Origin: Thermoplasmata archaeon
GTDB lineage: Archaea > Thermoplasmatota > Thermoplasmata > Lutacidiplasmatales > UBA184
Assembly (NCBI GenBank): GCA_022750195.1
Contig: JAKIWE010000001.1
Span: 680,672 to 744,671 of the forward strand
Reading direction: 5' to 3'
DNA length: 64,000 nt
Shown: piece by piece, positions 13,887 through 30,336 of the stretch
Layout: each line of letters begins with the position of its first letter
Position numbering within the stretch: position 1 is the stretch's first letter
Notes under the pieces: generated by a model
Told to the model about the DNA's origin: nothing
The model's input: the letters and a program-made list of their open reading frames with translations, nothing else
Database searches by the model: none
Program-made: the position numbers and the translations under genes

Positions 13887-14204
13887 GGCCAGGTCGCGGG
13901 AGTAACCCCCATTCTGTTCTAGACGGCATTCGACTGCGCGCACACCTCGGCGTTCTCGGGGTCAGGGTCATCCCGCCGAATCGGGCTTGCTCCCGGGGAG
14001 TCGGCCGTTTCACCAGGTCCGCGAGGAAGCTCCGGCGCAACGCCTTCACCGTACCTCGCGGCTGTGTCGTTTCTGCTCCGTTGCTCAGGCTCTCGCCTGA
14101 CGGGCTCCCGCCCGTCCCCGTGACCCCCGGAGTGGGGAGTTTCCTCAGCGGGGATCCCTTTGCAGAGCACCCCACCGTCAGCCGCCCTCCGCCTCCTGGC
14201 GGCC
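13883..14204 (-). ncRNA. rnpB: Archaeal RNase P RNA
   Basis: Minus strand: CR-I-like GAGGAAACTCCCC (14146-14134), GCAGAAACGACACAG, CR-IV AGCAAGCCC, CR-V AGAACAGAATGGGGGTTACT (13920-13901); P1 GGCCGCCAGG pairs with CCTGGCCGGCC. Confidence 0.93.
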
Positions 14205-14281
14205 ATCGGGAGGCGGTCGGGCACGATAATGTGCGCGGGAAGCTCGGATACCCTCAAGACCGCCCCCGTCTGCCCGGCCGC

Positions 14282-14986
14282 GTGGCGACCCCGCCCCCGA
14301 AGGCCGGCGAACGCGGTCGGCCGCCGAGCGGTCCGGCCCTCCTCCCGACGTTCCTGTTGGCGAAGGGGAAGGTCATGATCCCCGGACCGGAAGGGCCGGT
14401 CGTCGCACGCGGGGCCGACGGTGCGCTGCCCGACGTCTTCGAGACCGCAGACGCGCTCGCCGCTCAGTACGGCGCGCTCTACGTCGTCGACCTCGACGGG
14501 ATCGAGCGAAGCGCGCCGCAGCTCGACTACCTTCAGGAGCTCTCCCGAGGGACCGAGCTCTGGGTCGACGCCGGTCCGAAGAACGGCGGGGAGGTGGCCG
14601 ACGTCCTCATCGCTGGCGCGAGTCACGCTGTGATCTCGAGCACCCGGATCCGCTCGCCGCTCGAGGTTCGCCGCGCGTGGAAGCTCTCGCCCGAGCTGGC
14701 GTTCGAGATAGAGCTCAATTCGACCGGAACCTCGGCGCGTCATGCCGATTGGAAAGGGGCCGACCCTGTCTCGGTCGCCCTTTCGGTCCGCGCGATCGGG
14801 CTGACGGACATCGTCCTCAGCCCGCGGGAGATCCCGATTGACTGGGGACTCGTCCGCCGCTTGGCCGAGGGAGGCCCGACCTGGGTCGACGGGACCTTCG
14901 AGCTCGCCGAGCAGAGAAGCCTCCTCTCCTCGGGAGCCCGAGGGGGCATCTTCCATCCGCCGCTCACGAAGGTTGGCGAAGCGTGA
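14282..14986 (+). CDS. HisA/HisF-like (beta/alpha)8 barrel protein
   Basis: LLPTFLLAKGKVM...YVVDLDGIER...ELWVDAGPKNGGEVADVLIAGASHAVISSTRI; start placed downstream of the RNase P 5' end. Confidence 0.7.
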   Translation: MATPPPKAGERGRPPSGPALLPTFLLAKGKVMIPGPEGPVVARGADGALPDVFETADALAAQYGALYVVDLDGIERSAPQLDYLQELSRGTELWVDAGPKNGGEVADVLIAGASHAVISSTRIRSPLEVRRAWKLSPELAFEIELNSTGTSARHADWKGADPVSVALSVRAIGLTDIVLSPREIPIDWGLVRRLAEGGPTWVDGTFELAEQRSLLSSGARGGIFHPPLTKVGEA

Positions 14987-15213
14987 GCCGGGACCGACAG
15001 CTCGGAGCGCCCACTTCGGTCGCCCGACCCGGTTCGGAATGGCAGCTCTTCCTTCTTACCGCACCTCCGCCCGATGGTGGCTCGCCTGGCCCCCCCCACG
15101 GTCCCCGCTGGGGCTGACCGGATCCCCGACCCACCCCTCGCCCAACCGCCCCGGTCCGAGTACCAACGCGCAAGCCCTATGCGCGCTGGGGAGGTCGCGC
15201 GAGCACCTCAACA

Positions 15214-17916
15214 ATGACCCTGCGAGCGAACAGTACGAGGGGTGCCGCGAGCACTGTAGTCGCCTCCCTGGCGGTGGCTGCCTTCGTGGTCCTCGCCGGG
15301 CAGGTCCACCCCGGGTCGACCTCCCTCGTGACCCCCGCCCTCGGCGCCCCCACGGAGCTCGCTGCCCTCGGAACGCCGAGTCCATTGTCGGCGGCCGCGC
15401 TCCCGCCGGTCCCGGGCTCTTCCGCGTTCAATGTCTCGATCTCTGTCTCTCCCCACGTCGTCTGCGACGAAGGGACTAGCTCCTGCTCCGCCGGTACGGG
15501 CGTCGCGCGAGTCACGCTCAATGCCACGGCGCTCCCCGGTGGCGCCAACCAGACGTACTCGCGCGTGAACGTTGTGTTCATTCTCGAGACTACGCCGTAC
15601 GATGGCGGTGCGGACCCGAACTCCATGGGTTTGCGCTCCTGCTCTGGCGCCTCGGACACTTCACTGTGCAACGAATCGGACGCCCTGCGGACCTTCACGC
15701 AGTTCAGCCGCACGATCCTGGGCGGGATTCAGGCGACTCATCCGGGTGCCAACGTCTCCTTCGCCATGCTCGACGGATTCGCCACGCACGATGCATACGA
15801 CGATGGGGACGGGGCGGTCGTCTGGCAGGACATCCCCCACTTCACCTCCAACACGACGGCCTTCGCCCAGGCGGTGAATACGTCGCTCACCGGCGGCCCA
15901 TGGTCCAGCGGTCCGACGATCGCCGAGTCGGACCTCAGTGACAATTTTCTGACCGGCCCATCGATCACCCAAATCTACGGGGCTTTGGCCGGTGGGTTGG
16001 TAAACTGGACGAGCGGCGCGCACCGCGTAGTTGTCTGGGTCGGGTCGGCAGCGCCACGGGACGCCAACTACCTCGAGAGCTACGCCCCGACCTACAGCCC
16101 CTACACCCCCGGGTGCGGCACCTGTTTGGCGCCGAGTTGCGAACCGTCCTGGAACTTCTCGACCGGGGCTTCCCCGGCCTGCGAGGGTTGGGTGAGCTCC
16201 TCCGACGGCACGGCAGGCGATTCGATCGCCGCGCTGGCGACCAATGGATTTGCGTGTCGGGGGACCCCGGGGCGAGAGTGCACCATCGACGTGGTGAATC
16301 CACGGACCGTACCCACCGACCCGACGCTCAAGGGCTGGCAGAGGGTGAACAGCACAACGGCACGCACGGACGCGTCGAACGTGCTCGGGGCAGGGTGCGA
16401 CCTTTCCGCCGCCACCGGAGGAAGCTGGGACGGTCCGAGTAACTACCTGTGCGCGGACGGTCGGACCGGGACGCTCCCGGTCCACTCGATCGACGCCCCG
16501 TCGATCGACACGTCGCTCATCGGCGCGTTCGAGAACGTCTCGCTCGGCCGCCCCGCCGACGCGGGTTATGCTTCACCCTCGAACGGTTCCGGGTTCCAGT
16601 TCGTTCCCGGTCCCTCGATCGCATTTGCACTACCAATCAACGCGACGACGAGTTGCCGGCTCGCCAGCGGGTTCGCGGTCAACTGCCCGGCGGTCGTTGT
16701 TGCCTCCACCACCGCTGGCTCGGCGCTGGAATGGAACTTCACCGCCAACGGGATCGTGCACGTCGGCGACCGGTGGTCGGCGTCGTTCGATGTCGAGGTC
16801 AATGCTCTCCTCCGCGGGACCGTCCCGGTCGACCGGTGCTGGGCGGCGGGGTGCTCGATCGCCGGGAGTGGGGCCCTCTCCGGGCTCGCCACCGTCGCTC
16901 AGTACATCGACCCCGCCACGGGGAACTGGAGCCAACTCACTTTCCCCCTGGACGAGGTGGAGGCGTTGCCGCCCAGCGACCTCGTGGCGTCGTTCACCTA
17001 CGATCTACGTCCGGCCGCCTCCCCGACGAGCGTCGGCTTCACCGCGGCTGCCTCCGGAGGCGTGCCCCCGTACCAGAACTTCACCTGGAGATTCGGAGAC
17101 GGTTCGATGGTCTACTCCGCCACTCCGTGGACGAACCATACATACTCGGCCGGAACCTACGCCGTTGACCTCCTGGTCCGGGACCATGCGGGTCAGGTCC
17201 AGGGGGCGCAGCGGACGGTCGACGTCCCCGCCCCCCTGGCGGTAGGGCTCACGGCGAGTCCTGCGGCCCTGACAGTGACGACCGAGACGATCCTGGATGC
17301 GGTAGCCACTGGAGGTCTCCCGAGTCCCACCTACCTCTGGAGCGGCCTGCCCCGGGGCTGCACGAGCGCAAACCTCTCGAGTCTTTTCTGCCGCCCGACC
17401 TCCTCGGGCACCTTCACCGTGACCGTGCTCGTCACCGACGCGGCCGGCTCGAACGCGACGTCGACCACCCAGCTCGTCGTGCACCCGCTCCCGGTCGTTC
17501 GGCTCACTTGGTCGGGCAACATCGTCGGTTGTACCGGCTCGGTTCCATCCCCCACCTCCTTCGTCGCGAACGGGAGCGGGGGCACGCCCCCCTTCCAGTT
17601 CGGTTGGACCTTCGGCGACGGAGGAACCGCGACCTCGAACGGGTCGGTCATCTACCAGTACCACCAGCTCGCCCGGTTCAACGTGACGGTTGTGGGGACA
17701 GACGCCTCCGGAGCCAACCGAAGCGCGATGACGGTCGTCTACGTCACCTACGCCTCGTGCCCTCCACCGACGGCGAACGCGTCGGCGTCGTTCGCCTCCA
17801 ACGATTGGATCGAGATCGGCGGGGCCGCTCTCGTTGCCGTGGCGCTGGTCGCGGCGGTACTGGTCGTTCGTCGCCGCCGACGGAGCGCCGGCCCGCCTCC
17901 CGCCGAGGAGGAGTGA
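15214..17916 (+). CDS. Large secreted or cell-surface protein with PKD/Ig-like domains and C-terminal TM anchor
   Basis: N-terminal signal-like segment, FTWRFGDGSMVYS and FGWTFGDGGTATS PKD motifs, C-terminal TM plus RRRRR. Confidence 0.8.
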   Translation: MTLRANSTRGAASTVVASLAVAAFVVLAGQVHPGSTSLVTPALGAPTELAALGTPSPLSAAALPPVPGSSAFNVSISVSPHVVCDEGTSSCSAGTGVARVTLNATALPGGANQTYSRVNVVFILETTPYDGGADPNSMGLRSCSGASDTSLCNESDALRTFTQFSRTILGGIQATHPGANVSFAMLDGFATHDAYDDGDGAVVWQDIPHFTSNTTAFAQAVNTSLTGGPWSSGPTIAESDLSDNFLTGPSITQIYGALAGGLVNWTSGAHRVVVWVGSAAPRDANYLESYAPTYSPYTPGCGTCLAPSCEPSWNFSTGASPACEGWVSSSDGTAGDSIAALATNGFACRGTPGRECTIDVVNPRTVPTDPTLKGWQRVNSTTARTDASNVLGAGCDLSAATGGSWDGPSNYLCADGRTGTLPVHSIDAPSIDTSLIGAFENVSLGRPADAGYASPSNGSGFQFVPGPSIAFALPINATTSCRLASGFAVNCPAVVVASTTAGSALEWNFTANGIVHVGDRWSASFDVEVNALLRGTVPVDRCWAAGCSIAGSGALSGLATVAQYIDPATGNWSQLTFPLDEVEALPPSDLVASFTYDLRPAASPTSVGFTAAASGGVPPYQNFTWRFGDGSMVYSATPWTNHTYSAGTYAVDLLVRDHAGQVQGAQRTVDVPAPLAVGLTASPAALTVTTETILDAVATGGLPSPTYLWSGLPRGCTSANLSSLFCRPTSSGTFTVTVLVTDAAGSNATSTTQLVVHPLPVVRLTWSGNIVGCTGSVPSPTSFVANGSGGTPPFQFGWTFGDGGTATSNGSVIYQYHQLARFNVTVVGTDASGANRSAMTVVYVTYASCPPPTANASASFASNDWIEIGGAALVAVALVAAVLVVRRRRRSAGPPPAEEE

Positions 17917-18038
17917 CCCGCCTCCTCGGACGTAACCGAACCCGCGGCGCGCGTCCTCTCGCGCGACTTCGGCGTCTCCATTAAGGGAGTGGGATTGCTC
18001 ATGAGGGGAGCTCCGGTGCCTCCGTCGAAGAATCCTCG

Positions 18039-18100
18039 CAGGATGATGACACACAGAACCAGCTGAACGGTGATGAGTGAATGGGCGAGCTGACTGCCTG
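18039..18100 (+). ncRNA. Archaeal C/D-box sRNA
   Basis: C box ATGATGA (18043-18049), 13-nt guide, D' CTGA (18063-18066), 3 nt, C' GTGATGA (18070-18076), 13-nt guide, D CTGA (18090-18093); possible CAGG/CCTG terminal stem. Confidence 0.82.
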
Positions 18101-18234
18101 GATTCCCCCAAGATCGGAAAACGCGGGGTGCCGGCACCCTGGTTGATCGCGGAACTTCGGCAGACCGGCGAGCACGTTTTCCCTCGAGCGTGCGCGTTGG
18201 CCTTATAGGACGCGCCGCGTCCATCGCGCCGACG

Positions 18235-20157
18235 ATGTCCACCTCGAAGGCGGTTCATCGAATTCGATTCCCCGACGGAACGGAGCACCCGGTACCCGAC
18301 GGGACGACCGTTCGGCACGCGCTCGCGGCCTGGCAACCGGAGCGGGCCGCGACGTACCTCGCAGCGACTTTGGACGGACGGCCCGTCGACCTGGCGGCCC
18401 CGCTCGAGCGCTCGGGTCTCCTCGCGCCTCTCAGTTTTGACGACAAACTCGGTCGGGAAATCCTCCAGCATTCTGCCGCCCACGTCGTGGCGAAAGCGCT
18501 CACCCTGGTCGAACCGGCCGCCCTGCCCACGGTCGGGCCGCCGACCGACGAGGGGTTCTACTACGACTTCGACGTACGGCCCCTGACCCCGGACGACCAG
18601 AAAGCGGTGGAGGCCGCCGTGGCCCGGATCGTGGCAGCGGCCGAGCCGTTCCGCCGCGAGGAGATCGATCATGCCTCAGCCGTCGAACAGTTCCGAAACA
18701 ACCGCCACAAGGTCGAGTACATCGAAGCGATCCCGGAGGGCGAGAAGGTCAGCACCTACCGAACGGGCGACTGGGTCGACCTGTGCCGGGGACCACACGT
18801 CCCGGATACCTCCTGGCTCGGGGGCCTCCACCTGCTCGGCTTCTCCGCAATCACCTCGGAGGAGCGGCACGGCGGCGGGTCGTTCCAACGGATCCGCGGC
18901 GTCGCCTTCCCGACGGCCAGCCAGCTCCGGGAGTACCTCAAGCTGCGGAAGGAAGCGGAGGCGCGCGACCACCGTGTGCTCGGGGCCAAGCTCGAGCTGT
19001 TCACCTTCCACGACGACGTGCCCGGTTTCCCGTTCTGGCTCCCCAAGGGCATGATCGTGATCCGCGAGCTCGAGCGGTTCGTGACCGAGCACCTGGGCGA
19101 ATCCGGCTACTCCGAGGTCCGGACCCCGCTCCTGTTCTCCAGCGCGATCTACGAGACGAGCGGTCATTGGGAGAACTTCCGGGAGAACATGTTCCTGCTC
19201 GAGGTCGATGGTCGACCGTACGGGATCAAGCCGATGAACTGCCCCGGATCGATGCTGATCTTCGGGTCCCGGGCGCGCAGCTACCGCGAGCTCCCGATGC
19301 GCCTCGCCGAGTTCGCACCGCTGCACCGTCTGGAGCCGAGCGGCACCCTCCACGGGCTGACGCGGGTGCGCGAGCTCGTCCAGGACGACGCGCACCTGTT
19401 CGTCACCGAGGAGCAGGTCGAGACCGAGATCGCCACGCTGCTCGCGTGGATCGACCGGGCCTTCTCGACGTTCCGGCTCAGCTGGAGCTACGAGCTGTCG
19501 ACGCGGCCCGCGAAGTTCCTGGGCGAGCCGGCGGAGTGGGACCGGGCCGAGGCGGCGCTCGAGCGGTGCCTCAAGGCCTCCAAGGTCGCCTACAAGATCT
19601 CGCCCGGGGAGGGGGGATTCTACGCTCCCAAGATCGATATCCACATCCGCGACAGCCTCGGACGGCCCTGGCAGACCGGCACGATCCAGCTCGACTACCA
19701 GATGCCGAAGCGGTTTCGACTCCAGTACCAGGGCGCCGACGGACAGCTGCACATACCGATCGTCATTCACCGGACCATCCTCGGAACGTGGGAGAGGTTC
19801 CTAGGGGTCCTGCTCGAGCACACCAACGGCCGACTGCCACCGTGGCTGGCCCCCGTCCAACTGCGGGTCCTTCCGGTGACGGACGTGCACGTCGTGGCCG
19901 CGAAGAGCCTCGTCGAGGAGTTCGTGGCGGCGCACGTTCGGGCCGAGCTCGCTCCGGCCGACGAGACGCTCGGCAAGCGGGTGCGGGCCGCCGAGCTGGA
20001 GCGTGTTCCCTATGTCGCGGTCGTCGGCGACCAGGAGGTCGCGAACCACACGGTCGCGCTGCGCGTGCGGGGCGAGAAGGCCCCCCTCACGCTCTCCCGG
20101 GTGGAGCTCCTCGGTCGCGTCCTGGAGCGTTTGAAGCACCGCTCCTTCGACCCGTAG
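18235..20157 (+). CDS. thrS: Threonyl-tRNA synthetase, bacterial-type architecture (TGS + N2 editing + catalytic + anticodon)
   Basis: TGS-like N-terminus, HSAAH (HxxxH) and CRGPH editing motifs, MNCPGSM, VIHRTILGTWERF. Confidence 0.95.
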   Translation: MSTSKAVHRIRFPDGTEHPVPDGTTVRHALAAWQPERAATYLAATLDGRPVDLAAPLERSGLLAPLSFDDKLGREILQHSAAHVVAKALTLVEPAALPTVGPPTDEGFYYDFDVRPLTPDDQKAVEAAVARIVAAAEPFRREEIDHASAVEQFRNNRHKVEYIEAIPEGEKVSTYRTGDWVDLCRGPHVPDTSWLGGLHLLGFSAITSEERHGGGSFQRIRGVAFPTASQLREYLKLRKEAEARDHRVLGAKLELFTFHDDVPGFPFWLPKGMIVIRELERFVTEHLGESGYSEVRTPLLFSSAIYETSGHWENFRENMFLLEVDGRPYGIKPMNCPGSMLIFGSRARSYRELPMRLAEFAPLHRLEPSGTLHGLTRVRELVQDDAHLFVTEEQVETEIATLLAWIDRAFSTFRLSWSYELSTRPAKFLGEPAEWDRAEAALERCLKASKVAYKISPGEGGFYAPKIDIHIRDSLGRPWQTGTIQLDYQMPKRFRLQYQGADGQLHIPIVIHRTILGTWERFLGVLLEHTNGRLPPWLAPVQLRVLPVTDVHVVAAKSLVEEFVAAHVRAELAPADETLGKRVRAAELERVPYVAVVGDQEVANHTVALRVRGEKAPLTLSRVELLGRVLERLKHRSFDP

Positions 20158-20201
20158 ACCAAGCTCGATGAGCCCCGGCGCCCGGTCGGGCCCGGGGGCC
20201 C

Positions 20202-20402
20202 TCAGCGGCGCGAAGCCCGCAGGGCCCTCAAGGCGTCTTTCCGCGCGCTGAGAATCCGAGTCTCAAGTTCGACGGATCCGACCTGGTGGGCCTCCCGAAG
20301 ATGCATGCGCATGCGGGAAAGCTCGACGAGGGTACCACACTTCGGGCAGGTGACCCGGGAGCGACGCGACGAGCGGGAGTCCCGCGCCAGCCCGGCCTGC
20401 AT
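20202..20402 (-). CDS. Small C2H2-type zinc-finger protein
   Basis: CPKCGTLVELSRMRMHLREAH in a 66-aa ORF. Confidence 0.5.
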   Translation of the reverse strand: MQAGLARDSRSSRRSRVTCPKCGTLVELSRMRMHLREAHQVGSVELETRILSARKDALRALRASRR

Positions 20403-20658
20403 TCAGTGGCGCCACGACCCCCCCTCTTATTCCTCTTTGCCACGAGAGGAAAACCGCCGTCTCTACAGTTCTGTCCCGTAAATTGTTGACGCGGGGGTCC
20501 CGAATCCTGTTTCCCCAGTTGTTCATGGATCTCCGGTCTTCCCCGAACCCCGAGAGCAAAGTTGGCTTCATCACCCAATTCCGGCACAGTGCCCCTGACT
20601 CTCCCACCGTTCCACGACCTCTCCTCACGTTCATTCCCCCCCGAACCGTCGATAAACC

Positions 20659-21921
20659 GTGCGTGGTCGCAATGAGACGCCAGTCCGCACCGTGGTCGTC
20701 CCATTCCGCCCTCCCTACCCTCTCCTCCGCGCCCTTCTAGATGTCCGCTCGGGCACCCAGCGACTGCTTGCCGACTGGAGATCGCGTCCCGAGGAGTGTC
20801 GGTTCGAAGCGACGAAGCGGGTCTACCCGAGCCTGCGAGCTAGCTACCCCCACCTCGCGTCCAGTTGGGTTGTGACGATGGCGAACGAAGCCTCGGCGTC
20901 CCTCCGTTCCTGGGACCGCTGGCTCCGACGGATGAAGCGGCTCGACCCGCCACGCTGGGCTCGACTCCACGACCAGATTCCCCGACGTCGTGCCGTGAAG
21001 GGGAGCCTTCATCGGGCCCTCTATCGCCTCCGCGGTCGTGTCCTCGACATCACCCTGCATCGCGATCGCCACGTCCAGATCGAGCTCGGGTTCGTCCGGA
21101 ACCCCCTCTTCGAGCGATACGGAACCGCGTCGAACTGGACGTTCGGTCTCGCCGTCACTGACCGAGCTCTGATCTTCCAGTTTCGGGTCCCTCAAGATCA
21201 GCCGATCGTCGCCGAGAGCGCCGGGGTCGACCTCAACATGCCGTCGGCCGACCTCGCTACCTCGGACGGGCGAACGAGCTCCCTCGACCTTCGACCGATC
21301 ACCGCCATCCAAGGAGCGATGGCGCGGAAACGGGCCGCCATCTCCCGCCACATCTCGAAGGATCTCCGCCATCAGCGGGCCGTGCTCCGACGGTATCGTC
21401 GACGGGAGAGGAACCGGGTCCGGCCACTCCTCCACGCCGTGGGGAACGAGCTGCTGAGGCAGGTCGGGACTAGGAACGTCGTCTTCGAAGACCTATCGAG
21501 CACGACGGAGGAGTGCCAGAAGATCACGCGCGGGGGTGATCCTGACGCGCGCCGAAGACTTTCGGCCTGGACACACGGGGAGTTCCAAAGGATCGTGCGC
21601 TACAAGTCCACGACAGCGGTTGTTCGAGTGAACGCGAGAGGGACCTCCTCGGAGTGTCCGAACTGCGGTGGGCCGCTGGCCCACCCCTCGTGGCGACGGG
21701 CGACATGCGGGCACTGCCAGGGGGATTGGCACCGGGACCGGGCGGCCGCGTTGGTCATCCTGGGCCGAGGTCACCACCTCCTACGGGGAGCGGCTCCTCC
21801 CCCGAGCGCGCGCAACGAGCTCTTGGAGGCGGCGCGATGGCGTCCGGACGACGAGAGAAGTCCGGGCCCCGCCGGCGAGCCAATGAAAGGAGACGACGCG
21901 AAAGCGAGCGGACGAGGCTGA
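20659..21921 (+). CDS. tnpB: TnpB-like (IS200/IS605 OrfB) RuvC nuclease
   Basis: RuvC-I GVDLN, RuvC-II VVFEDLSS, zinc ribbon CPNCGG...CGHC, RuvC-III WHRDRAAALVIL; basic N-terminus. Confidence 0.85.
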   Translation: MRGRNETPVRTVVVPFRPPYPLLRALLDVRSGTQRLLADWRSRPEECRFEATKRVYPSLRASYPHLASSWVVTMANEASASLRSWDRWLRRMKRLDPPRWARLHDQIPRRRAVKGSLHRALYRLRGRVLDITLHRDRHVQIELGFVRNPLFERYGTASNWTFGLAVTDRALIFQFRVPQDQPIVAESAGVDLNMPSADLATSDGRTSSLDLRPITAIQGAMARKRAAISRHISKDLRHQRAVLRRYRRRERNRVRPLLHAVGNELLRQVGTRNVVFEDLSSTTEECQKITRGGDPDARRRLSAWTHGEFQRIVRYKSTTAVVRVNARGTSSECPNCGGPLAHPSWRRATCGHCQGDWHRDRAAALVILGRGHHLLRGAAPPPSARNELLEAARWRPDDERSPGPAGEPMKGDDAKASGRG

Positions 21922-22090
21922 ACCTGTCCGTTCAAAGAGGAGTAAGAGACCCTCGCTCTACCGGCGCGGGCGATCCGGGGGGGGCGAATTCGGCGATTTT
22001 TCGAGGTGGCGGAGCCGCCGATTGACTCGGGTAACCGTTTAATAGCCCTCCCCCCCCGCCGCCCTCGGTCTTTCACGCGCGGGTCTCCCC

Positions 22091-24202
22091 ATGGAAACGG
22101 TCGAACTCCTGATCGCGCTCGCCGGGATCCTAGCGCTCGCCTACGCCGGCATCCAGACCGTGCTCGTCCTTCGCGAGGAGGAGGGGACGGAAGAGATGCG
22201 CCGCATCTCCCAAGCGATCCGGGAGGGAGCGGTCGCCTTCCTACGCCAAGAGTACACGGTGGTCTTCGCGGTCGCGATCGCCCTCGCGATCATCATCGCG
22301 GTCGCCTTCGGTATCTCCGGTCCGGGCCCCGCGCTCGCGGTCGGCTTCCTGTTCGGCGCGGCGGGGAGCGCCCTCGCGGGCGCCGCGGGGATGCTCGTCT
22401 CGGTGCGGGCGAACGTGCGGACGGCCGCGCACGCGCGCAAGGGCAACCTCGCCGCGACGATGTCCTTCGCCTTCCGGGGCGGTAGCGTCACCGGTCTCAC
22501 GGTGGCCGGGCTCGCCCTCCTCGAGCTGATTGGCTTCTACGTCGTCTTCAACGGCGATGTGACCCAAATGATCGGGCTCCTGTTCGGCGCCTCGCTGATG
22601 AGCCTGTTCGCGCGGGTCGGCGGAGGGATCTACACGAAGGGTGCCGACGTCGGCGCCGACCTCGTGGGAAAGGTCGAGGCCGGCATCCCGGAGGACGACC
22701 CGAGAAACCCGGCGGTCATTGCGGACAACGTCGGCGACAACGTGGGCGACTGCGCGGGGATGGCGGCCGACCTGTTCGAAACGTACGTGGTGACCGCCCT
22801 CGGCACGATGCTCTTGGCCTACCTGATCGACAAAGGACCCACGAACTTCCTGGCGACGTTCCCGAACGCTGTCCTGTTCCCGTTGGTGGTCTGCGCGTGG
22901 GCGATCGTCGCGACCGTGGTCGGAGCTCTGTTCGTGCGGATGCGCCCCGGCGGCTCGATCATGGGGGCCCTGTACCAGGGCCTCGGCGCCACGACCGTGG
23001 TGGGCCTCGTCGGGCTCTACTTCCTCGACGGTCAGTTGATGGGGGGTAGCGTTCCGATCTTCGTCGCGACCGCGATCGGTCTGATCGTCATGGTCCTGAT
23101 CGTCGTCGTCACCGACTACTACACCTCGGCCAAGTACAAGCCGGTCGCGCGGATCGCGGACAGCGCGCAGGCCGGCGCGGGCCCGACGGTCATCACCGGA
23201 CTCTCCGTCGGCCTGGAGTCCGCCTGGGTACCGGGGTTGGTCATCGTCGCGGGGACGCTCGGTGCGTACGCCGCCCTCGCGTCCGCGAGCCCCGCGGGGA
23301 TCGGGACCGGCCTCGCGGCCTCGTCCTACGGGCTCTACGGCATCGGCCTAGCGGCGGCGAGCATGCTCGCCGTCACCGGGATGATCATCTCGATCGACGC
23401 CTTCGGACCGATCACCGACAACGCCGGCGGCATCGCGGAAATGGCAAAACTGCCCCCCGAAGCCCGCGCGGTCACCGACCCGCTCGACGCCGTTGGCAAC
23501 ACGACGAAAGCGATCACGAAGGGGTACGCCATCGGCTCGGCCGCCCTCGCGGCGCTAGCGCTCTTCGCCGCCTACACCTTCGCCGTGGCCAACAGCGCCA
23601 ACATCGGCTGGACGAGCTTCACGTCCCAGCTCACCATCGACAATCCGCTGGTCGTCGCGGGGCTGATCATCGGCGCGATCCTGCCGTTCTTCTTCACATC
23701 GTTCCTGATGAACGCGGTCGGAGTCGCCGCGCAGTCGATCGTCTTCGAGGTGCGGCGTCAGTTCCGCGAGATCAAGGGGATCATGGAGGGGACGGCCCAG
23801 CCGGAGTACGCGAACTGCGTGCGGATCGTCACGGTCACCGCCCTGCGGCAGCTCGCGGTGCCCGCGGCCATCGCGGTCGTCACTCCTCTCGCGGTCGGCT
23901 TCCTTCTCGGCCCCATCGCGCTCGCGGGCCTCCTGCTCGGCGTCATCCTCTCCGGTTTCCCGCTCGCCCTTACCATGACCACCGGCGGTGGGGCTTGGGA
24001 CAACGCGAAGAAGTACATCGAGTCCGGCCACTACGGCGGCAAGCACTCGGACGCGCACAAGGCGGCGATCGTCGGCGACACGGTCGGCGACGCGACCAAG
24101 GACACCGCCGGTCCGGCGATCAACCCGCTCATCAAGGTCGTCAACACCATTTCCATCCTGTTCGTCGCGCTGATGGTGGCCCACTCGGTGATCGGACTCT
24201 AA
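22091..24202 (+). CDS. hppA: Membrane-bound ion-translocating pyrophosphatase, K+-independent type
   Basis: GGGIYTKGADVGADLVGKVE, DDPRNPAVIADNVGDNVGDCAGMAADLFE, GNTTKAITKG signature. Confidence 0.96.
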   Translation: METVELLIALAGILALAYAGIQTVLVLREEEGTEEMRRISQAIREGAVAFLRQEYTVVFAVAIALAIIIAVAFGISGPGPALAVGFLFGAAGSALAGAAGMLVSVRANVRTAAHARKGNLAATMSFAFRGGSVTGLTVAGLALLELIGFYVVFNGDVTQMIGLLFGASLMSLFARVGGGIYTKGADVGADLVGKVEAGIPEDDPRNPAVIADNVGDNVGDCAGMAADLFETYVVTALGTMLLAYLIDKGPTNFLATFPNAVLFPLVVCAWAIVATVVGALFVRMRPGGSIMGALYQGLGATTVVGLVGLYFLDGQLMGGSVPIFVATAIGLIVMVLIVVVTDYYTSAKYKPVARIADSAQAGAGPTVITGLSVGLESAWVPGLVIVAGTLGAYAALASASPAGIGTGLAASSYGLYGIGLAAASMLAVTGMIISIDAFGPITDNAGGIAEMAKLPPEARAVTDPLDAVGNTTKAITKGYAIGSAALAALALFAAYTFAVANSANIGWTSFTSQLTIDNPLVVAGLIIGAILPFFFTSFLMNAVGVAAQSIVFEVRRQFREIKGIMEGTAQPEYANCVRIVTVTALRQLAVPAAIAVVTPLAVGFLLGPIALAGLLLGVILSGFPLALTMTTGGGAWDNAKKYIESGHYGGKHSDAHKAAIVGDTVGDATKDTAGPAINPLIKVVNTISILFVALMVAHSVIGL

Positions 24203-24294
24203 GGGTCGGGCGGCGGGGCCCTCCAAACGGGTTATCGGTCGCGCGAACCTTTGATAACGGCGGCCGACCTCCCGCTTTCGGAGGTTGTCCGCGC

Positions 24295-24339
24295 ATGTGC
24301 GACACCTGCGGCTGCACCCCGGAAAAGAAACCCAAGTGA
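24295..24339 (+). CDS. 14-aa micropeptide MCDTCGCTPEKKPK
   Basis: GGAGG 10 nt upstream of the ATG; TTTGATAA upstream; hairpin ccaggggc-ttg-gcccctgg downstream (24381-24399). Confidence 0.55.
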   Translation: MCDTCGCTPEKKPK

Positions 24340-24380
24340 CCTCCTTGGCCACGTGTCGCGTCGTCCGGGCCGCCGACGTG

Positions 24381-24399
24381 CCAGGGGCTTGGCCCCTGG
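24381..24399 (+). terminator. Hairpin downstream of the micro-ORF
   Basis: Perfect 8-bp stem ccaggggc / gcccctgg, 3-nt loop. Confidence 0.4.
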
Positions 24400-24423
24400 T
24401 TTGGCGACGAAGGATCGGAGGCG

Positions 24424-24786
24424 TTAGGCGTAGTGGCTGAGGGAGGAGCGGTCCTTGCGTGACGCTTCGCGCTGCTCGCCGCGCTCCTCGTTGCGACGCT
24501 CCCGCTCGCAGTCGTCCTCGGTGACCCACTGGAACTGGAGGTCCTCGGGGTGCTCGTGGCTCACGTACGCCCCCGCCTCGAACGCGGAGGTGATCAGCTC
24601 TTCCAGGTTCTCCACGTCGTTCCCCTCGAGCCGGCCGGCGGTCCGCCAGAACCAGTCCGGAGCCTTGCCCGCGGTCTGGAGGTACTCCGTCACGAGGTCG
24701 TACACCGAACTTCGTCCATCGCTCAGCCGGACGTGCAGATGTTTGTGCTCCTCCGGAGCTCCCGAAGCATCCTGATCCGAAGCCAT
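24424..24786 (-). CDS. Hypothetical protein, acidic/charged C-terminus
   Basis: Intact 120-aa ORF between convergent/divergent neighbours; no family recognised. Confidence 0.55.
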   Translation of the reverse strand: MASDQDASGAPEEHKHLHVRLSDGRSSVYDLVTEYLQTAGKAPDWFWRTAGRLEGNDVENLEELITSAFEAGAYVSHEHPEDLQFQWVTEDDCERERRNEERGEQREASRKDRSSLSHYA

Positions 24787-24892
24787 GCCGGTCGATGTCT
24801 ACCGGGGCCTATAAGCGCGAGCCGGCGGGCGGAGCCTGCTCCTCGCCAGTCCCACCCTTCATGAGGAAGCGCGGGCTGGAGGGACCGTTTCG

Positions 24893-25261
24893 ATGGCCGA
24901 CGCCGACCTCGCCGCGATCTCCGCCACCAACGTACCCCCGGCGACCAGCGCGCGGTACGTCTACCTGATGACGCGCCTTCGGACCAAGCAGATCACCATG
25001 GAGGAGGCGACCGAGCTGTTCTCTCTCCAACAGGGCCTGCTGAACGCCGCGCGAGCGGCCGCAGCCCGCGCCCCGGCAGCGTCTGCGACGACCGCGTCGC
25101 GTCTGGCGGGGGTGCCGACGCTCCCGATGCCGATGGCCCTCTCCGACGATACGCTGTGGACCGGCCTTCTGTTCGCGGGCGCGGGGGCCGGCCTGCTCGC
25201 GGCCGTGCTCCGCCGCGCTACCGAGGGGCCGAAACCGGCCGAGTCCGGCCGTCCGTCCTGA
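24893..25261 (+). CDS. Hypothetical protein with C-terminal TM segment
   Basis: ORF ends just before mre11; TGLLFAGAGAGLLAAVLRRA hydrophobic segment. Confidence 0.55.
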   Translation: MADADLAAISATNVPPATSARYVYLMTRLRTKQITMEEATELFSLQQGLLNAARAAAARAPAASATTASRLAGVPTLPMPMALSDDTLWTGLLFAGAGAGLLAAVLRRATEGPKPAESGRPS

Positions 25262-25272
25262 TCGGAGGGTCC

Positions 25273-26586
25273 ATGGACCCTCGGAACTTCCGCTTCGCCC
25301 ATTTGGCCGATGCTCACGTCGGTGCCTGGAGCCGGGACGCGGCGGTCCGTCACGCCCTTCGCGCGAGCGTTCTCGGGGCGCTCGCCGAGGTAGAAACTCG
25401 AGACTGCGAGTTCCTGCTGATCAGCGGCGACCTGTTCCACACCCCGATCCCCGAACCTTCCGAGGTCGCCCCGGTCGCCGCGGCCCTGAAGCGCCTCACC
25501 GACGCCGGGCGCCGCGTGTATGTGATCTACGGCTCGCACGATTACGTGGCGCACCGGGTCAGCTGGCTCGATGTCCTCGCCGAGACCGGAATCTTCCTTC
25601 GTGCCGCCCCCGAGGCGGTGCGCGTCGAGGGAGAGCGGTGGACGCTCCCGTTCCACACCGATGGCCCCACCGGGGCCCAGATCGCAGGGATCTCGGGCCG
25701 GGCGCATGGCCTCGACCGGAGCTATTTCGCGGCCGTCGACTCCGAGGCGTTCCGGGCGGCGCCGGGGTTCAAGATCTTCCAGTTCCACGCCGCCATCGAG
25801 GAGTACCTCCCCGAGCCGTTCCGAGGTCACATCCACGGCGTGCCGGTCCACGACCTCCCCGGCGGCTGCGACTACTACGCAGGGGGCCACATCCACTACT
25901 CCTACACCGGGGAGGGGCCCGATGGCGGCCTGCTGGTCAACCCCGGCGCGGTGTTCGGCACCAGCGTCAAGGACCTCGAGTACGGGGCGGCCGGACGCTC
26001 GCATCAGGGTGTCGTCGTGGTCACCGTCCAAGACGGTCGGCCCGAGGTCGAGTTCGTCGACACCGCCCCGCGAGCTCGACTGAAGGTGTTCGACGTCGAC
26101 CTCACCGGTCGCTCCGCCGAAGAGGCCCGGGCCACGGTGGCGAAGGCGATCGAGACGCAGGCCTCCCCGGGGGCGCTATTGTTCCCCCGACTCCACGGAC
26201 GGATCTCCGACGGCTCGCTCGCAGGGCTCGGGCTGCGGGCTTCGGACGCCGAAGCCTCGGCGCTCGGCGCCGCGGCCGTTCACTGGGACGTGCAAGAGGT
26301 GGCGGTCGAGCGGGAGGCGGACGGAGCGCCCCTAGCGACCGGCGACGTGGTCGACCGCGAGGTATTCGCGGAGTTGGCCCGGAACCAGGACCCTGCCCTG
26401 CCCGAACTCGCGGGCCCCGACGGGGAGTCGAAGATGGGCGAGCTGGTGCGCCAGCTTGGCTTCGCCCGCGCGGACGGCCAGTCGCTCGCCGATTACCGGG
26501 TCGAACGGATCGAGGTGGCCCTCGAGATCCTCGGGGTGACTCGCGCGCACCGTCCACGAGCGGAGCCGAGGGCCCGTGCAACTTAG
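25273..26586 (+). CDS. mre11: Mre11/SbcD DNA double-strand-break nuclease
   Basis: HLADAHVG, LLISGDLFH, YGSHD, GGHIHYS metallophosphoesterase motifs; followed directly by rad50. Confidence 0.93.
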   Translation: MDPRNFRFAHLADAHVGAWSRDAAVRHALRASVLGALAEVETRDCEFLLISGDLFHTPIPEPSEVAPVAAALKRLTDAGRRVYVIYGSHDYVAHRVSWLDVLAETGIFLRAAPEAVRVEGERWTLPFHTDGPTGAQIAGISGRAHGLDRSYFAAVDSEAFRAAPGFKIFQFHAAIEEYLPEPFRGHIHGVPVHDLPGGCDYYAGGHIHYSYTGEGPDGGLLVNPGAVFGTSVKDLEYGAAGRSHQGVVVVTVQDGRPEVEFVDTAPRARLKVFDVDLTGRSAEEARATVAKAIETQASPGALLFPRLHGRISDGSLAGLGLRASDAEASALGAAAVHWDVQEVAVEREADGAPLATGDVVDREVFAELARNQDPALPELAGPDGESKMGELVRQLGFARADGQSLADYRVERIEVALEILGVTRAHRPRAEPRARAT

Positions 26587-29236
26587 AGAGCTCAAGCTCC
26601 GGAACATCCGGAGCTACCGCGAGGCGACGCTCGCGCTGGGCCCGGGCACGACGCTGATCGTCGGGGATGTCGGGAGCGGCAAGACGTCCCTCCTGTACGG
26701 GATCGAGCTCGCCTTGTTCGGATTCGCGGAGGTCGAGGCACCGTACCTCGTGCGCCAGGACGCGAGCGAGGCCGAGGTCACCGTCGGGCTCGCGGACGGT
26801 GACGATCGGATCGAGGTCTCGCGCCACCTCAAGCGTCTGACGCGTAAGTCCCGGGCGAGCTTCGAGGTCACCGCGGCGACGTTTCGGCGCAACGGGGCCG
26901 CCACGCAGTACTCGGCCACCGAACTTCGTCAGCGGGTCATCGACCTGCTCGGATTTCCGGACAATCCGAACCCGCGGGCGCACTCCGACCTGTGGCGCTG
27001 GGCCGTGTATCTGCCGCAGGAACGGATGCGGGACGTCCTCGACCAGGAGGCAGGGTCGCGGCTGGAGACCGTCCGCAAATCGCTGGGACTCGAACAGTAT
27101 CGGATCGCCAGCGAGAACGCTCATGATGTGGTCGCTCCGCGCCTGCGCGCGGATGCCGAGAAGCTCGAGGCCGAGGCCGAGGGACTTCGTCACCACGACG
27201 ACGAGTTCACGCGGCTCTCGGCCGAGATCGAAGCGCAGGACGCCGCCCTCCCCGAGCTGACGGAGCAGGTAGCACGACTTCGCGGGGAGCGGGACGAGCA
27301 GCGTCGGAGCCTCGAAGCGCTCGAACAACGGCGCCAGTCGGCGGAGTTCGACCGCACACGGCTCAACGAGCTCGACGGACAGATCGCGTCGGCTCGCGCC
27401 CGGACCTCGGAGGTCGAACGTCGGGCCGGGGAGCTCCGGCTCGAGTCCGAGACGCTCGAACGCGAGCTCACGAGCCTCGCTACCACGCCGGGGGAGCTGG
27501 AACGACACGACGCCGCTCTCGCCGAGCTCCGCGGCCGACGAGAGGGACTTCGTCGTCGTCAATCCGAGCTGACCTCGATACTCTCCGAACTCCCACGGCT
27601 TCGCTCCGAGCGCGCGGCGCTCGAGGCGACGCAGCGCGGGGCGCAGCGGCAGCTCATCGAGACCGCCCAGGAGGTCGAGCGGGCGGAAGCGGCCCTGCAG
27701 ACGGGCGCCGGTTCAGGCCCTCTACGGGAACCCCCGGCGCCCACGCCCCGCGGCCTCGCCGACATCGACCGTGACTCCGCGCAGATCGAGGAACGTCGAT
27801 CGGTGGCGACGTCGGAGGTGGGGCGTCTGGACGGTGCGGCCCATGAGGTCGAGGAGCTGTTGACCGTGGGCCGCTGCCCGAGGTGCCACCAGGCGGTCCG
27901 CCCGGAGGAGTTCGAAAGCCACCGCGCGGAGGCGCTGCGGGCGGTGGAGGAGGCGCGTCGAACGGCCGCTGAGCTCGAAACCTCGGCCACGTCCCTCCGC
28001 GAGGAGCGCCGTGCGCGGGAGCGTTACGAGCGGGCGCACGACCGTTGGATCGAACGGGAGCGCGCGCAAGCCGAGCTGCTCGGCCGCCGGGACCGACTCC
28101 GCGCTTCGGTGCAGGAACTCACAGCGGCGCAGGACCGGGCCGTGGCAGCGCTCGGCGCTCTCGCGCGGAACATCACCCGCCTAGAACCGAGGGAATCGGA
28201 GCTTCACGGACTTCTCGACCCCCTCGGTGAGGTCGAGCGGATGGTGGAGTCGGCCGACGGTCAAAGGGCGCAGCTGGTGAGGGACCTCGAGCGGCTCCGC
28301 GCAGGCGAGGAGCGTCGGGCCTCCGGGCGCCGTCGGACCGAAGAGCTTGCTCGGGAGCTCGTCGCCGCGGGAGAACAGATGTCGTTGCTCTCAGCACGGA
28401 GCCTAGAGCTTAGCGAACGGTTGGAGGGGGCCGAGGGCCTCGCGCAAGAGCTGGCTCACTCCCGGCAGGAACGGGACAGGATCGAAGGCGCGACGGCGCA
28501 CGCCGAACAGTCCCTCGCTCGGGCGGAGCAACAGCTCGCGGACAAGCGTGACCGTCGGGACGCTTCCGTGGCTGGGAGACGCCGTCGCGGGGAGCTCGTC
28601 GCCGACGCCGACCACCGACGAGCCCTCGCGGGATGGTTGGCCGGGCCCTTCACCGAAGCGATCGAGGTTGTCGAGCGTCGGCGCCTAGCCGCCGCTCAGG
28701 TCGAGTTTGAACGGACGCTCGCTCGTCATTTCGCGACGCTCGTCGAGGACCCGGCGATGGTGGCCCGCTGCGGAAGCTCGTTCGCCCCGGCGGTGGAGAT
28801 CGAGGGCGAGTGGACCCCGCCGGAAGCGCTGAGCGGGGGCGAACGTACCGCGCTGGCGCTGGCGTTCCGCCTGGCCCTGGGCGAAGTGGTTCGTTCCGCG
28901 GGACGCCTTCAGCTCGAAACGCTCCTGCTCGACGAGCCGACGGATGGCTTCTCGCCCGAGCAGGTGATTCGGATGGGCGAGCTCATCGAGTCCCTCCAGA
29001 TCCCGCAGGTGATCCTCGTCTCGCACGAGGGCGCGCTCGCCGCGATCTCGGACCGCGTCGTGAGGGTCCGCAAGGTCGCGGGTGAGTCGGTGCTCGAAGG
29101 GACCGACGGAGGGACCGGTCGTACGGTCGCCTCGAGCTCGCCGCCGTCCGCCACTGGTTTGGCCGCCGCGCGACGGACCCGGCGACGCAAGGCCACGCTG
29201 GACGGCGAGCCGGCCACGGCCCCGCCGGCGGTCTAG
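26576..29236 (+). CDS. rad50: Rad50/SbcC ATPase with zinc hook
   Basis: Walker A GDVGSGKTSLL, zinc hook CPRC, LSGGERTALALAFRLAL, LLLDEPTDGFS. Confidence 0.95.
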   Translation: MQLRELKLRNIRSYREATLALGPGTTLIVGDVGSGKTSLLYGIELALFGFAEVEAPYLVRQDASEAEVTVGLADGDDRIEVSRHLKRLTRKSRASFEVTAATFRRNGAATQYSATELRQRVIDLLGFPDNPNPRAHSDLWRWAVYLPQERMRDVLDQEAGSRLETVRKSLGLEQYRIASENAHDVVAPRLRADAEKLEAEAEGLRHHDDEFTRLSAEIEAQDAALPELTEQVARLRGERDEQRRSLEALEQRRQSAEFDRTRLNELDGQIASARARTSEVERRAGELRLESETLERELTSLATTPGELERHDAALAELRGRREGLRRRQSELTSILSELPRLRSERAALEATQRGAQRQLIETAQEVERAEAALQTGAGSGPLREPPAPTPRGLADIDRDSAQIEERRSVATSEVGRLDGAAHEVEELLTVGRCPRCHQAVRPEEFESHRAEALRAVEEARRTAAELETSATSLREERRARERYERAHDRWIERERAQAELLGRRDRLRASVQELTAAQDRAVAALGALARNITRLEPRESELHGLLDPLGEVERMVESADGQRAQLVRDLERLRAGEERRASGRRRTEELARELVAAGEQMSLLSARSLELSERLEGAEGLAQELAHSRQERDRIEGATAHAEQSLARAEQQLADKRDRRDASVAGRRRRGELVADADHRRALAGWLAGPFTEAIEVVERRRLAAAQVEFERTLARHFATLVEDPAMVARCGSSFAPAVEIEGEWTPPEALSGGERTALALAFRLALGEVVRSAGRLQLETLLLDEPTDGFSPEQVIRMGELIESLQIPQVILVSHEGALAAISDRVVRVRKVAGESVLEGTDGGTGRTVASSSPPSATGLAAARRTRRRKATLDGEPATAPPAV

Positions 29237-30336
29237 AGCAGCTTGTCGAACTCGGCCTCGGTCCACGGCGGCCGAGAGGCGACCGAGAGATTCTCGTCGA
29301 GGTGTTCCGCCCGCTTCTGGCCCACGAGGGCGGCGAGCGTCCCCGGCGCCGACCTCGCGAACTGGATCGCCGTTTGGGCGGGGGTGAGGTCGGGGGCCGC
29401 GATCCCCCGCCGGGCGAGCTGGCCCTGGAGCAGGGGCACGCTCGTGAAGCATCCCAGGCCCAGGGCCCGCGCGGCATCGAAGAGGGTAAGGCGCGTGCCT
29501 CCGACGACCTGGTTCCGCTCTACCGCGGCCTCGGGCATCCCGACATTGAACGGGAACTGGAGGAAGCGAAGTCCATGGTCCTCCCCGCCGACCTCCCGGG
29601 CGATGCGGAGCGCGTCCTGGACGGCGAGGTATCCCGGGTCCGTCCGTTTGGCCCGCAAGCAGTCCCAGGTGGCGAGACCGTAGGCGCCGAGCACGCCGGC
29701 ATCGCGGTATCCCTCGTACAGTTCGAACGCCGAACGGAGGCGACGTTCGAACTCCTCCCGCCCCACCACGGCGAGTTGGGCGTCCGGAGCGTTGTGCAGA
29801 TACAGGAGGTCGAGGGTGGCCAGTCCCAAATTCCTCCGGCTCCGCTCGAACTGGTCGCGCAGGTACCCGACGCTCATCGCGTGGCAGCCGTCGACGATGT
29901 CGGCGACGTCCAGGACCCCCTTCTCCACCAGTTCGCTCTCGACCCACCGGTCGGGAGCGACGCCCGACTCGGCGTCCGGAGCGAAGTAGCCGCTCTTGGT
30001 CGCGACGAACACCTCGTCCCTCGCGACCCGGCCCGAGCCGACGGCGGCCGCGAGCGCGCGCCCGACGCTTCGCTCGGCCCGTTGGTATCGGTAGTTGATG
30101 GCCGTATCGAGCACGTTGATACGTCGGCTGCTCAGGCAGCGAGCGACAGCCGCCTCGACCGCCGAGTCGGTGGCCGCGTCCGGCTCCCCGATGTAGGTGC
30201 CGAGCCCGAGCGAGGTCAGTTCGAGGCGGACGGGAGCCGTACGGAAGTGAGCGGGCGAGACCCCCTCGTCCTCGACGGCCCGGTCGCGGAATCGGCGCGT
30301 CCCGTCCGGGGTCGCCTGGCCCGGCGCAAGGTCCAC
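29233..30336 (-). CDS. Aldo/keto reductase
   Basis: LGLGTYIGE, VLDTAINYRYQRAERSVGRAL, LDLLYLHNAP. Confidence 0.85.
   Translation of the reverse strand: MDLAPGQATPDGTRRFRDRAVEDEGVSPAHFRTAPVRLELTSLGLGTYIGEPDAATDSAVEAAVARCLSSRRINVLDTAINYRYQRAERSVGRALAAAVGSGRVARDEVFVATKSGYFAPDAESGVAPDRWVESELVEKGVLDVADIVDGCHAMSVGYLRDQFERSRRNLGLATLDLLYLHNAPDAQLAVVGREEFERRLRSAFELYEGYRDAGVLGAYGLATWDCLRAKRTDPGYLAVQDALRIAREVGGEDHGLRFLQFPFNVGMPEAAVERNQVVGGTRLTLFDAARALGLGCFTSVPLLQGQLARRGIAAPDLTPAQTAIQFARSAPGTLAALVGQKRAEHLDENLSVASRPPWTEAEFDKLL

What the first reader, a model, noticed from the sequence alone, without database searches (positions are those of the whole stretch)
20659..21921. TnpB-like RuvC nuclease without TnpA
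All three RuvC acidic motifs (GVDLN, FEDL, HRDRAA) and the CxxC..CxxC ribbon are present, so catalysis is probably retained. No TnpA-type transposase gene lies nearby, and flanks are thrS and hppA. TnpB proteins are RNA-guided nucleases (established); here the family is divergent and high-GC, with a C-terminal tail rich in Pro/Arg/Asp.
Basis: partly seen in the sequence, partly recalled or inferred. Interest (0 to 1): 0.6.

Follow-up and report, generated by a model that had tools for sequence, protein, structure and literature searches.

The report
TnpB-only element with predicted omega-RNA
This is a small mobile DNA element in a Thermoplasmata archaeon that carries an apparently intact RNA-guided nuclease gene (tnpB) and, overlapping the end of that gene, the guide-RNA gene it should use; such "TnpB without TnpA" elements are a known, common kind.

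Summary
ORF 20659-21921 is a TnpB-family protein with D191, E277, D360 and four zinc-ribbon cysteines, invariant in its relatives, between thrS and hppA, with no tnpA nearby or detectable in the genome assembly. It is not a domesticated host gene. It lies in a mobile element of about 1.37 kb (left end about 20574, right end 21944): a 91% identical copy sits at another site in the same genome, about 30 relatives have thrS-hppA without it, and the second copy has an uninterrupted orthologous site in the nearest relative. The 3' end encodes a predicted omega-RNA (21780-21944). Across 13 members it has a conserved, covarying fold, a pseudoknot joining the first hairpin loop to the element's last bases, and a sequence-variable but structure-conserved hairpin just before the tip; conservation stops at the tip, so the guide should start at 21945. 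The 'Pro/Arg/Asp-rich tail' is the reading frame running through this RNA: tail dN/dS is mostly above 1, against 0.15 in the protein core. Best reading: an IS605-group TnpB-only (IS1341-type) element, a new member of a known kind. Activity, TAM and the mobilising transposase are unproven.

The parts
20574..21944 (+). Whole mobile element (about 1.37 kb). Right end firm; left end estimated to about +/-10 bp.
   Evidence: Copy 2 (G000:C32) shares 20606-21945 at 91%; right-end conservation collapses at GAGGAGTA in all members; copy 2 versus the uninterrupted site in G038 puts its left end about 35-40 bp upstream of the shared block.
20583..20593 (.). Candidate left-end palindrome GGCACAGTGCC
   Evidence: Read directly; a short palindrome also lies about 5 nt inside the left end of L048 (TTTTCAGTTGAAAA). 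Weak.
20608..20613 (+). Conserved left-end motif RTTYCA (here GTTCCA)
   Evidence: Recurrent in most of the 9 left ends aligned; function unknown.
20659..21921 (+). tnpB ORF, 420 aa: N-terminal WED/REC-like part (about 9-170), RuvC D191/E277/D360, zinc ribbon C333-C353, non-conserved tail from about 373
   Evidence: dN/dS 0.15 for residues 1-320.
21780..21944 (+). Predicted omega-RNA scaffold overlapping the 3' end of tnpB; the 5' end may lie further upstream
   Evidence: Alignment A3; RNAalifold; 25 double-changed pair cells vs 9.3 +/- 2.1 shuffled and 2-8 in slid controls.
21784..21804 (+). Omega-RNA hairpin H1 (CGGGG..CCCCG); its loop carries the 5' strand of the pseudoknot, GCUCCU(C) 21793-21799
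21809..21900 (+). Omega-RNA multi-part stem: 21809-21824 pairs with 21888-21900; inner helix 21836-21846 pairs with 21863-21873
   Evidence: Compensatory changes in 10 pairs of the structure.
21906..21933 (+). Right-end hairpin (sequence-variable, structure-conserved)
   Evidence: A stem-loop is predicted at this place in 20 of 20 copies examined, z from -0.8 to -9.0 against shuffled sequence.
21937..21944 (+). Right tip GAGGAGTA: 3' strand of the pseudoknot, last bases of the element
   Evidence: Pairs with the H1 loop, 6-7 bp in 11 of 13 non-redundant members, covarying (cp3 ACUAUC/GGUAGU, L175 GACUGUU/GACAGUU); permutation 13/10000.
21945..21960 (+). Predicted guide segment (first 16 nt of right flank: AGAGACCCTCGCTCTA)
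   Evidence: Conservation ends here in all members; role inferred from ISDra2 TnpB (PMC8612924).

Best explanation
The locus is a TnpB-only insertion element of the IS200/IS605 group (IS1341-type) in a Thermoplasmata archaeon. [quoted passage not shown] Proposed mechanism: a Y1-type transposase supplied in trans (not present in this assembly) excises or copies the element; TnpB with its omega-RNA then cuts the resulting empty site beside a TAM, and repair from an intact copy restores the element. Shown here: TnpB family membership by sequence, purifying selection on the protein core, element ends (right firm, left approximate), past mobility, and a conserved covarying RNA structure ending at the right tip. 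Inferred: transcription, processing, cleavage, TAM and mobilisation.
For: TnpB/Cas12f family by profile and fold (AlphaFold model, best PDB hits Cas12f and ISDra2/ISFba1 TnpB, E 4.7e-10 to 6.5e-6). Catalytic and zinc residues invariant. Second copy with defined ends, thrS-hppA without the element across the genus, uninterrupted site of copy 2 in G038. Omega-RNA; a covariance model finds the same RNA in 20 of 106 genomes of the order, several of those hits weak. Tail under RNA rather than protein constraint. A subterminal right-end hairpin within about 10 nt of the scaffold end and a non-conserved C-terminus overlapping the omega-RNA are described for known TnpBs (PMC10278001; PMC10097598).
Against: No transcription or cleavage data. 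Score under NCBI's guided_TnpB cut-off (83.4 vs 100 bits). RuvC-III lacks the Asn of DRDxN. Left end and TAM not fixed: the three best-placed left ends read CTTA, CCTA and CCTA, and the window's own left flank has no such motif at the estimated boundary. No Y1 transposase in this genome and only 5 of 78 in the genus, so the assumed helper is unseen. The structure model is poor beyond residue about 320.
Confidence: 0.85

Rival explanations
1. A host-domesticated TnpB used for another purpose (for example an RNA-guided repressor or defence nuclease), no longer mobile.
For: Intact ORF under purifying selection; no transposase partner.
Against: Absent from the thrS-hppA gap in about 30 relatives; second and third copies at other sites; RuvC residues intact, unlike nuclease-dead TnpB-derived repressors; element right end maintained.
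Confidence: 0.06
2. A dying relic: the element no longer moves and the protein persists by chance.
For: Copy 2 has an in-frame TGA, L052 a frameshift and L090 is interrupted; several relatives keep only the 3' part. Copies 1 and 2 differ by 11% outside the 3' end, so their split is not recent.
Against: Window copy intact, dN/dS 0.15; catalytic residues, pseudoknot and hairpin all kept.
Confidence: 0.2
3. Element moved by a different kind of transposase that duplicates TA (IS630/Tc1-like) rather than by a Y1 enzyme.
For: Copy 2: CTTA|element|TAATCCC versus empty CTTAATCCC, which can be read as a TA duplication; the L048 and L052 left ends also read TA; copy 2's ends are partly inverted (CCCTCTTTGGCGC / GCTCAAAGAGGAG).
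Against: The same bases fit an element ending in TA with no duplication; the inverted match is not seen in the window copy or most members; the conserved right-end hairpin is an IS605 trait.
Confidence: 0.05

Closest known systems
ISDra2 TnpB and its omega-RNA/reRNA (IS200/IS605; PMC8612924, PMC10097598)
   Same: Size (420 vs 408 aa), WED/REC-RuvC-zinc ribbon order, D-E-D catalytic residues, omega-RNA from the 3' end of tnpB plus right end, pseudoknot in the scaffold, non-conserved C-terminus over the RNA.
   Different: No tnpA in the element; RuvC-III HRDRA rather than DRDxN; low sequence identity (13-16% in structural alignment); TAM unknown here.
IS1341-type / TnpB-only elements
   Same: tnpB alone between IS605-like ends, more than one copy, no transposase of its own.
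   Different: No helper transposase found in this genome; a lineage-specific family in Thermoplasmata with its own omega-RNA structure.
Cas12f (type V-F)
   Same: Best structural hits are Cas12f1 chains; Cas12f2 profile match 8e-5.
   Different: No CRISPR-like repeat array in 14000-30000; the guide is predicted to come from the element flank.

Membership tests
TnpB | RuvC D/E/D catalytic residues | tested here: met
   D191, E277, D360 invariant.
TnpB | Cys4 zinc ribbon (TNB domain) | tested here: met
   PF07282 44.4 bits, cut-off 26.3.
TnpB | Passes NCBIfam guided_TnpB curated cut-off | tested here: not met
   83.4 vs 100 bits, E 1.9e-23, profile 177-387 of 389. A divergent member by this yardstick; a naming threshold rather than a defining trait.
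TnpB | WED/REC N-terminal lobe | tested here: inconclusive
   N-terminal 170 residues confidently modelled, full-length Foldseek matches to Cas12f/TnpB, but global TM about 0.4.
TnpB | Omega-RNA overlapping tnpB 3' end and element right end | tested here: met
   Comparative evidence only.
TnpB | RNA-guided DNA cleavage next to a TAM | not testable with these tools
   Needs biochemistry.
IS200/IS605 group | Subterminal palindrome at right end | tested here: met
   Hairpin predicted in 20 of 20 copies.
IS200/IS605 group | Subterminal palindrome at left end | tested here: inconclusive
   Short palindromes in some copies; left ends not all placed.
IS200/IS605 group | No target-site duplication | tested here: inconclusive
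   One usable uninterrupted site; TA ambiguity.
IS200/IS605 group | Y1 TnpA (own or helper) | tested here: not met
   PF01797 absent from own genome (95.65% complete, 52 contigs); hence filed only as TnpB-only (IS1341-type), a recognised sub-type with isolated tnpB.
IS607 | Serine recombinase TnpA with N-terminal HTH | tested here: not met
   Only recombinase in the genome has the catalytic domain at residues 3-145 of 210.
Cas12f / type V CRISPR | CRISPR array nearby | tested here: not met
   No repeat array in 14000-30000.

The most novel reading that the evidence does not exclude
3'-only copies of this element in relatives, which keep the omega-RNA with pseudoknot and hairpin but lack most of tnpB (for example 238 bp in G123, 97.9% identical to the full copy of the same genome), act as stand-alone guide RNAs loaded in trans by the full-length TnpB.
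Probability: 0.07. Interest if true: 0.6.

Novelty: new member of a known kind. Interest (0 to 1): 0.33.

Why it matters
It adds a TnpB/omega-RNA family from Thermoplasmata (no paper in the open library searched holds both words TnpB and Thermoplasmata), with a predicted scaffold, pseudoknot, right end and guide start that can be tested directly. The dN/dS contrast between core and tail gives a simple sequence-only way to see where a TnpB gene turns into its guide RNA.

Tried and rejected
Known RNA families: no credible Rfam match to the 3' end. Single-sequence folding is weak (z -1.5); the signal is comparative. 3' hyperconservation between copies 1 and 2 (about 225 identical nt, 21630-21854; 3% vs 11% difference, p 8e-6) was considered as proof of RNA constraint but begins about 150 nt inside the protein-coding part with no synonymous change there, so gene conversion fits as well; not used as proof. 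Empty site of the window's own copy: locus found in G038 but the intergenic DNA is too diverged to place the junction. Empty site of L048 in a sister species: not found. TAM by aligning left ends: not conclusive. The dN/dS lines for L174 used a wrong region and are ignored. Alignment A2 had wrong ranges for some sequences and was replaced by A3.

Full report
What is there. The ORF at 20659-21921 (420 aa, GTG start) is real and belongs to the TnpB family: PF07282 at 1.9e-11, over its cut-off, NCBIfam guided_TnpB at 1.9e-23 but under its cut-off, and profile hits to Fanzor2, Cas12f and ISDra2 TnpB chains in the PDB. An AlphaFold model from five family members is confident over most of residues 7-180 and poor after about 320; its best structural matches are Cas12f1 and TnpB chains along nearly their full length (E down to 4.7e-10, global TM about 0.4). 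D191, E277, D360 and C333, C336, C350, C353 are invariant in the relatives aligned. In RuvC-III the family has RD-x-A/G/V where typical TnpBs have RD-x-N (clade motifs as given in PMC10278001).

It is a mobile element. The same genome holds a copy at G000:C32 with 92% protein identity and one in-frame TGA, and a third at G000:C11:589672 with 55%. DNA similarity between the window and copy 2 runs from about 20605 to 21944 and stops on both sides. thrS and hppA are neighbours in about 30 relatives without the element. For copy 2 the closest relative, G038, has the uninterrupted site: left flank CCCCTTA, right flank ATCCCGCC, joined as CGCTTAATCCCGCC in G038. That puts the left end of copy 2 about 35-40 bp upstream of the block shared with the window; the equivalent in the window is near 20574 (an estimate by eye). 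For the window's own copy the intergenic DNA is too diverged to place the junction exactly.

The guide-RNA gene. An alignment of the 3' ends of 12 members shows strong conservation that ends at the tip GAGGAGTA and then collapses. In a 13-member alignment RNAalifold finds a hairpin and a long compound stem with 10 pairs showing compensatory change. With the pseudoknot added, 93.3% of cells are paired against 86.7% in shuffles and 42-54% in slid controls, and 25 cells have changes on both sides against 9.3 +/- 2.1. The loop of the first hairpin pairs with the tip: GCUCCUC/GAGGAGU in the window, ACUAUC/GGUAGU in cp3, GACUGUU/GACAGUU in L175 (permutation 13 in 10000, not corrected for relatedness). 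Between the conserved core and the tip every copy folds into a hairpin whose sequence changes freely. Both features match published omega-RNAs: a right-end hairpin within about 10 nt of the scaffold end (PMC10278001) and a pseudoknot shared with Cas12 guides (PMC10097598). The guide should therefore begin at 21945.

The tail. Between the window and copy 2, dN/dS is 0.15 for residues 1-320, while residues 373-420 have dS 0.028 and dN 0.048; the tail ratio is 1.5 against L050 and 1.3 between L048 and L050, and 0.70 between the window and L048. The tail thus tends to keep its nucleotides rather than its amino acids. In ISDra2 the corresponding C-terminus overlaps the omega-RNA, is disordered and dispensable (PMC10097598).

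The missing TnpA. No Y1 transposase is found in this assembly (95.65% complete, 5.57% contamination, 52 contigs), and 5 of 78 genomes of the genus have one. The one serine recombinase has its catalytic domain at the N-terminus, unlike IS607 TnpA (IS607 layout from general knowledge). The genome has seven TnpB-type zinc-ribbon matches in all. Isolated tnpB elements are a recognised type (PMC8612924), so this absence is not surprising by itself; which enzyme moved the element remains open.

Spread. Relatives encoding the protein are Thermoplasmata MAGs. A covariance model of the RNA matches 20 of 106 genomes of the order, several only weakly. Some copies are full length, others are interrupted or keep only the 3' part. 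The 3'-only copies could be decay products; because the searches were made partly with 3' sequence or a 3' model they are over-represented, and no functional claim is made.

Verdict. Observation confirmed, interpretation supported and sharpened: an IS605-group TnpB-only element with a well-supported predicted omega-RNA. New member of a known kind; interest modest.

Noticed in passing
L172:2826-3063 (G123:C43); also L094, L091, L093, L139, L176: Copies reduced to the 3' part of the element. The G123 one is 97.9% identical to the full copy in the same genome and keeps hairpin and pseudoknot with a different flank as guide; L139 lacks the pseudoknot loop and L176 lacks the 5' half of the RNA.
   Followed up: partly
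L134, L135, L136 (G032); L137, L138 (G058): Contigs start or end inside a right end of the cp3 subfamily, as expected if these genomes hold several near-identical recent copies that broke the assembly.
   Followed up: partly
window 20202-20402 (-): Small ORF with a CxxC..H zinc-finger-like motif between thrS and hppA; similar sequence persists at the same place in relatives.
   Followed up: no
window 21630-21854 versus L097: About 225 identical nucleotides between copies 1 and 2 inside an otherwise 11% diverged element, starting upstream of the predicted RNA: gene conversion or constraint.
   Followed up: partly
G000:C11:1203469, C11:77801, C44:70764, C44:133547: Four further TnpB-type genes in the same genome, outside this close family.
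   Followed up: no
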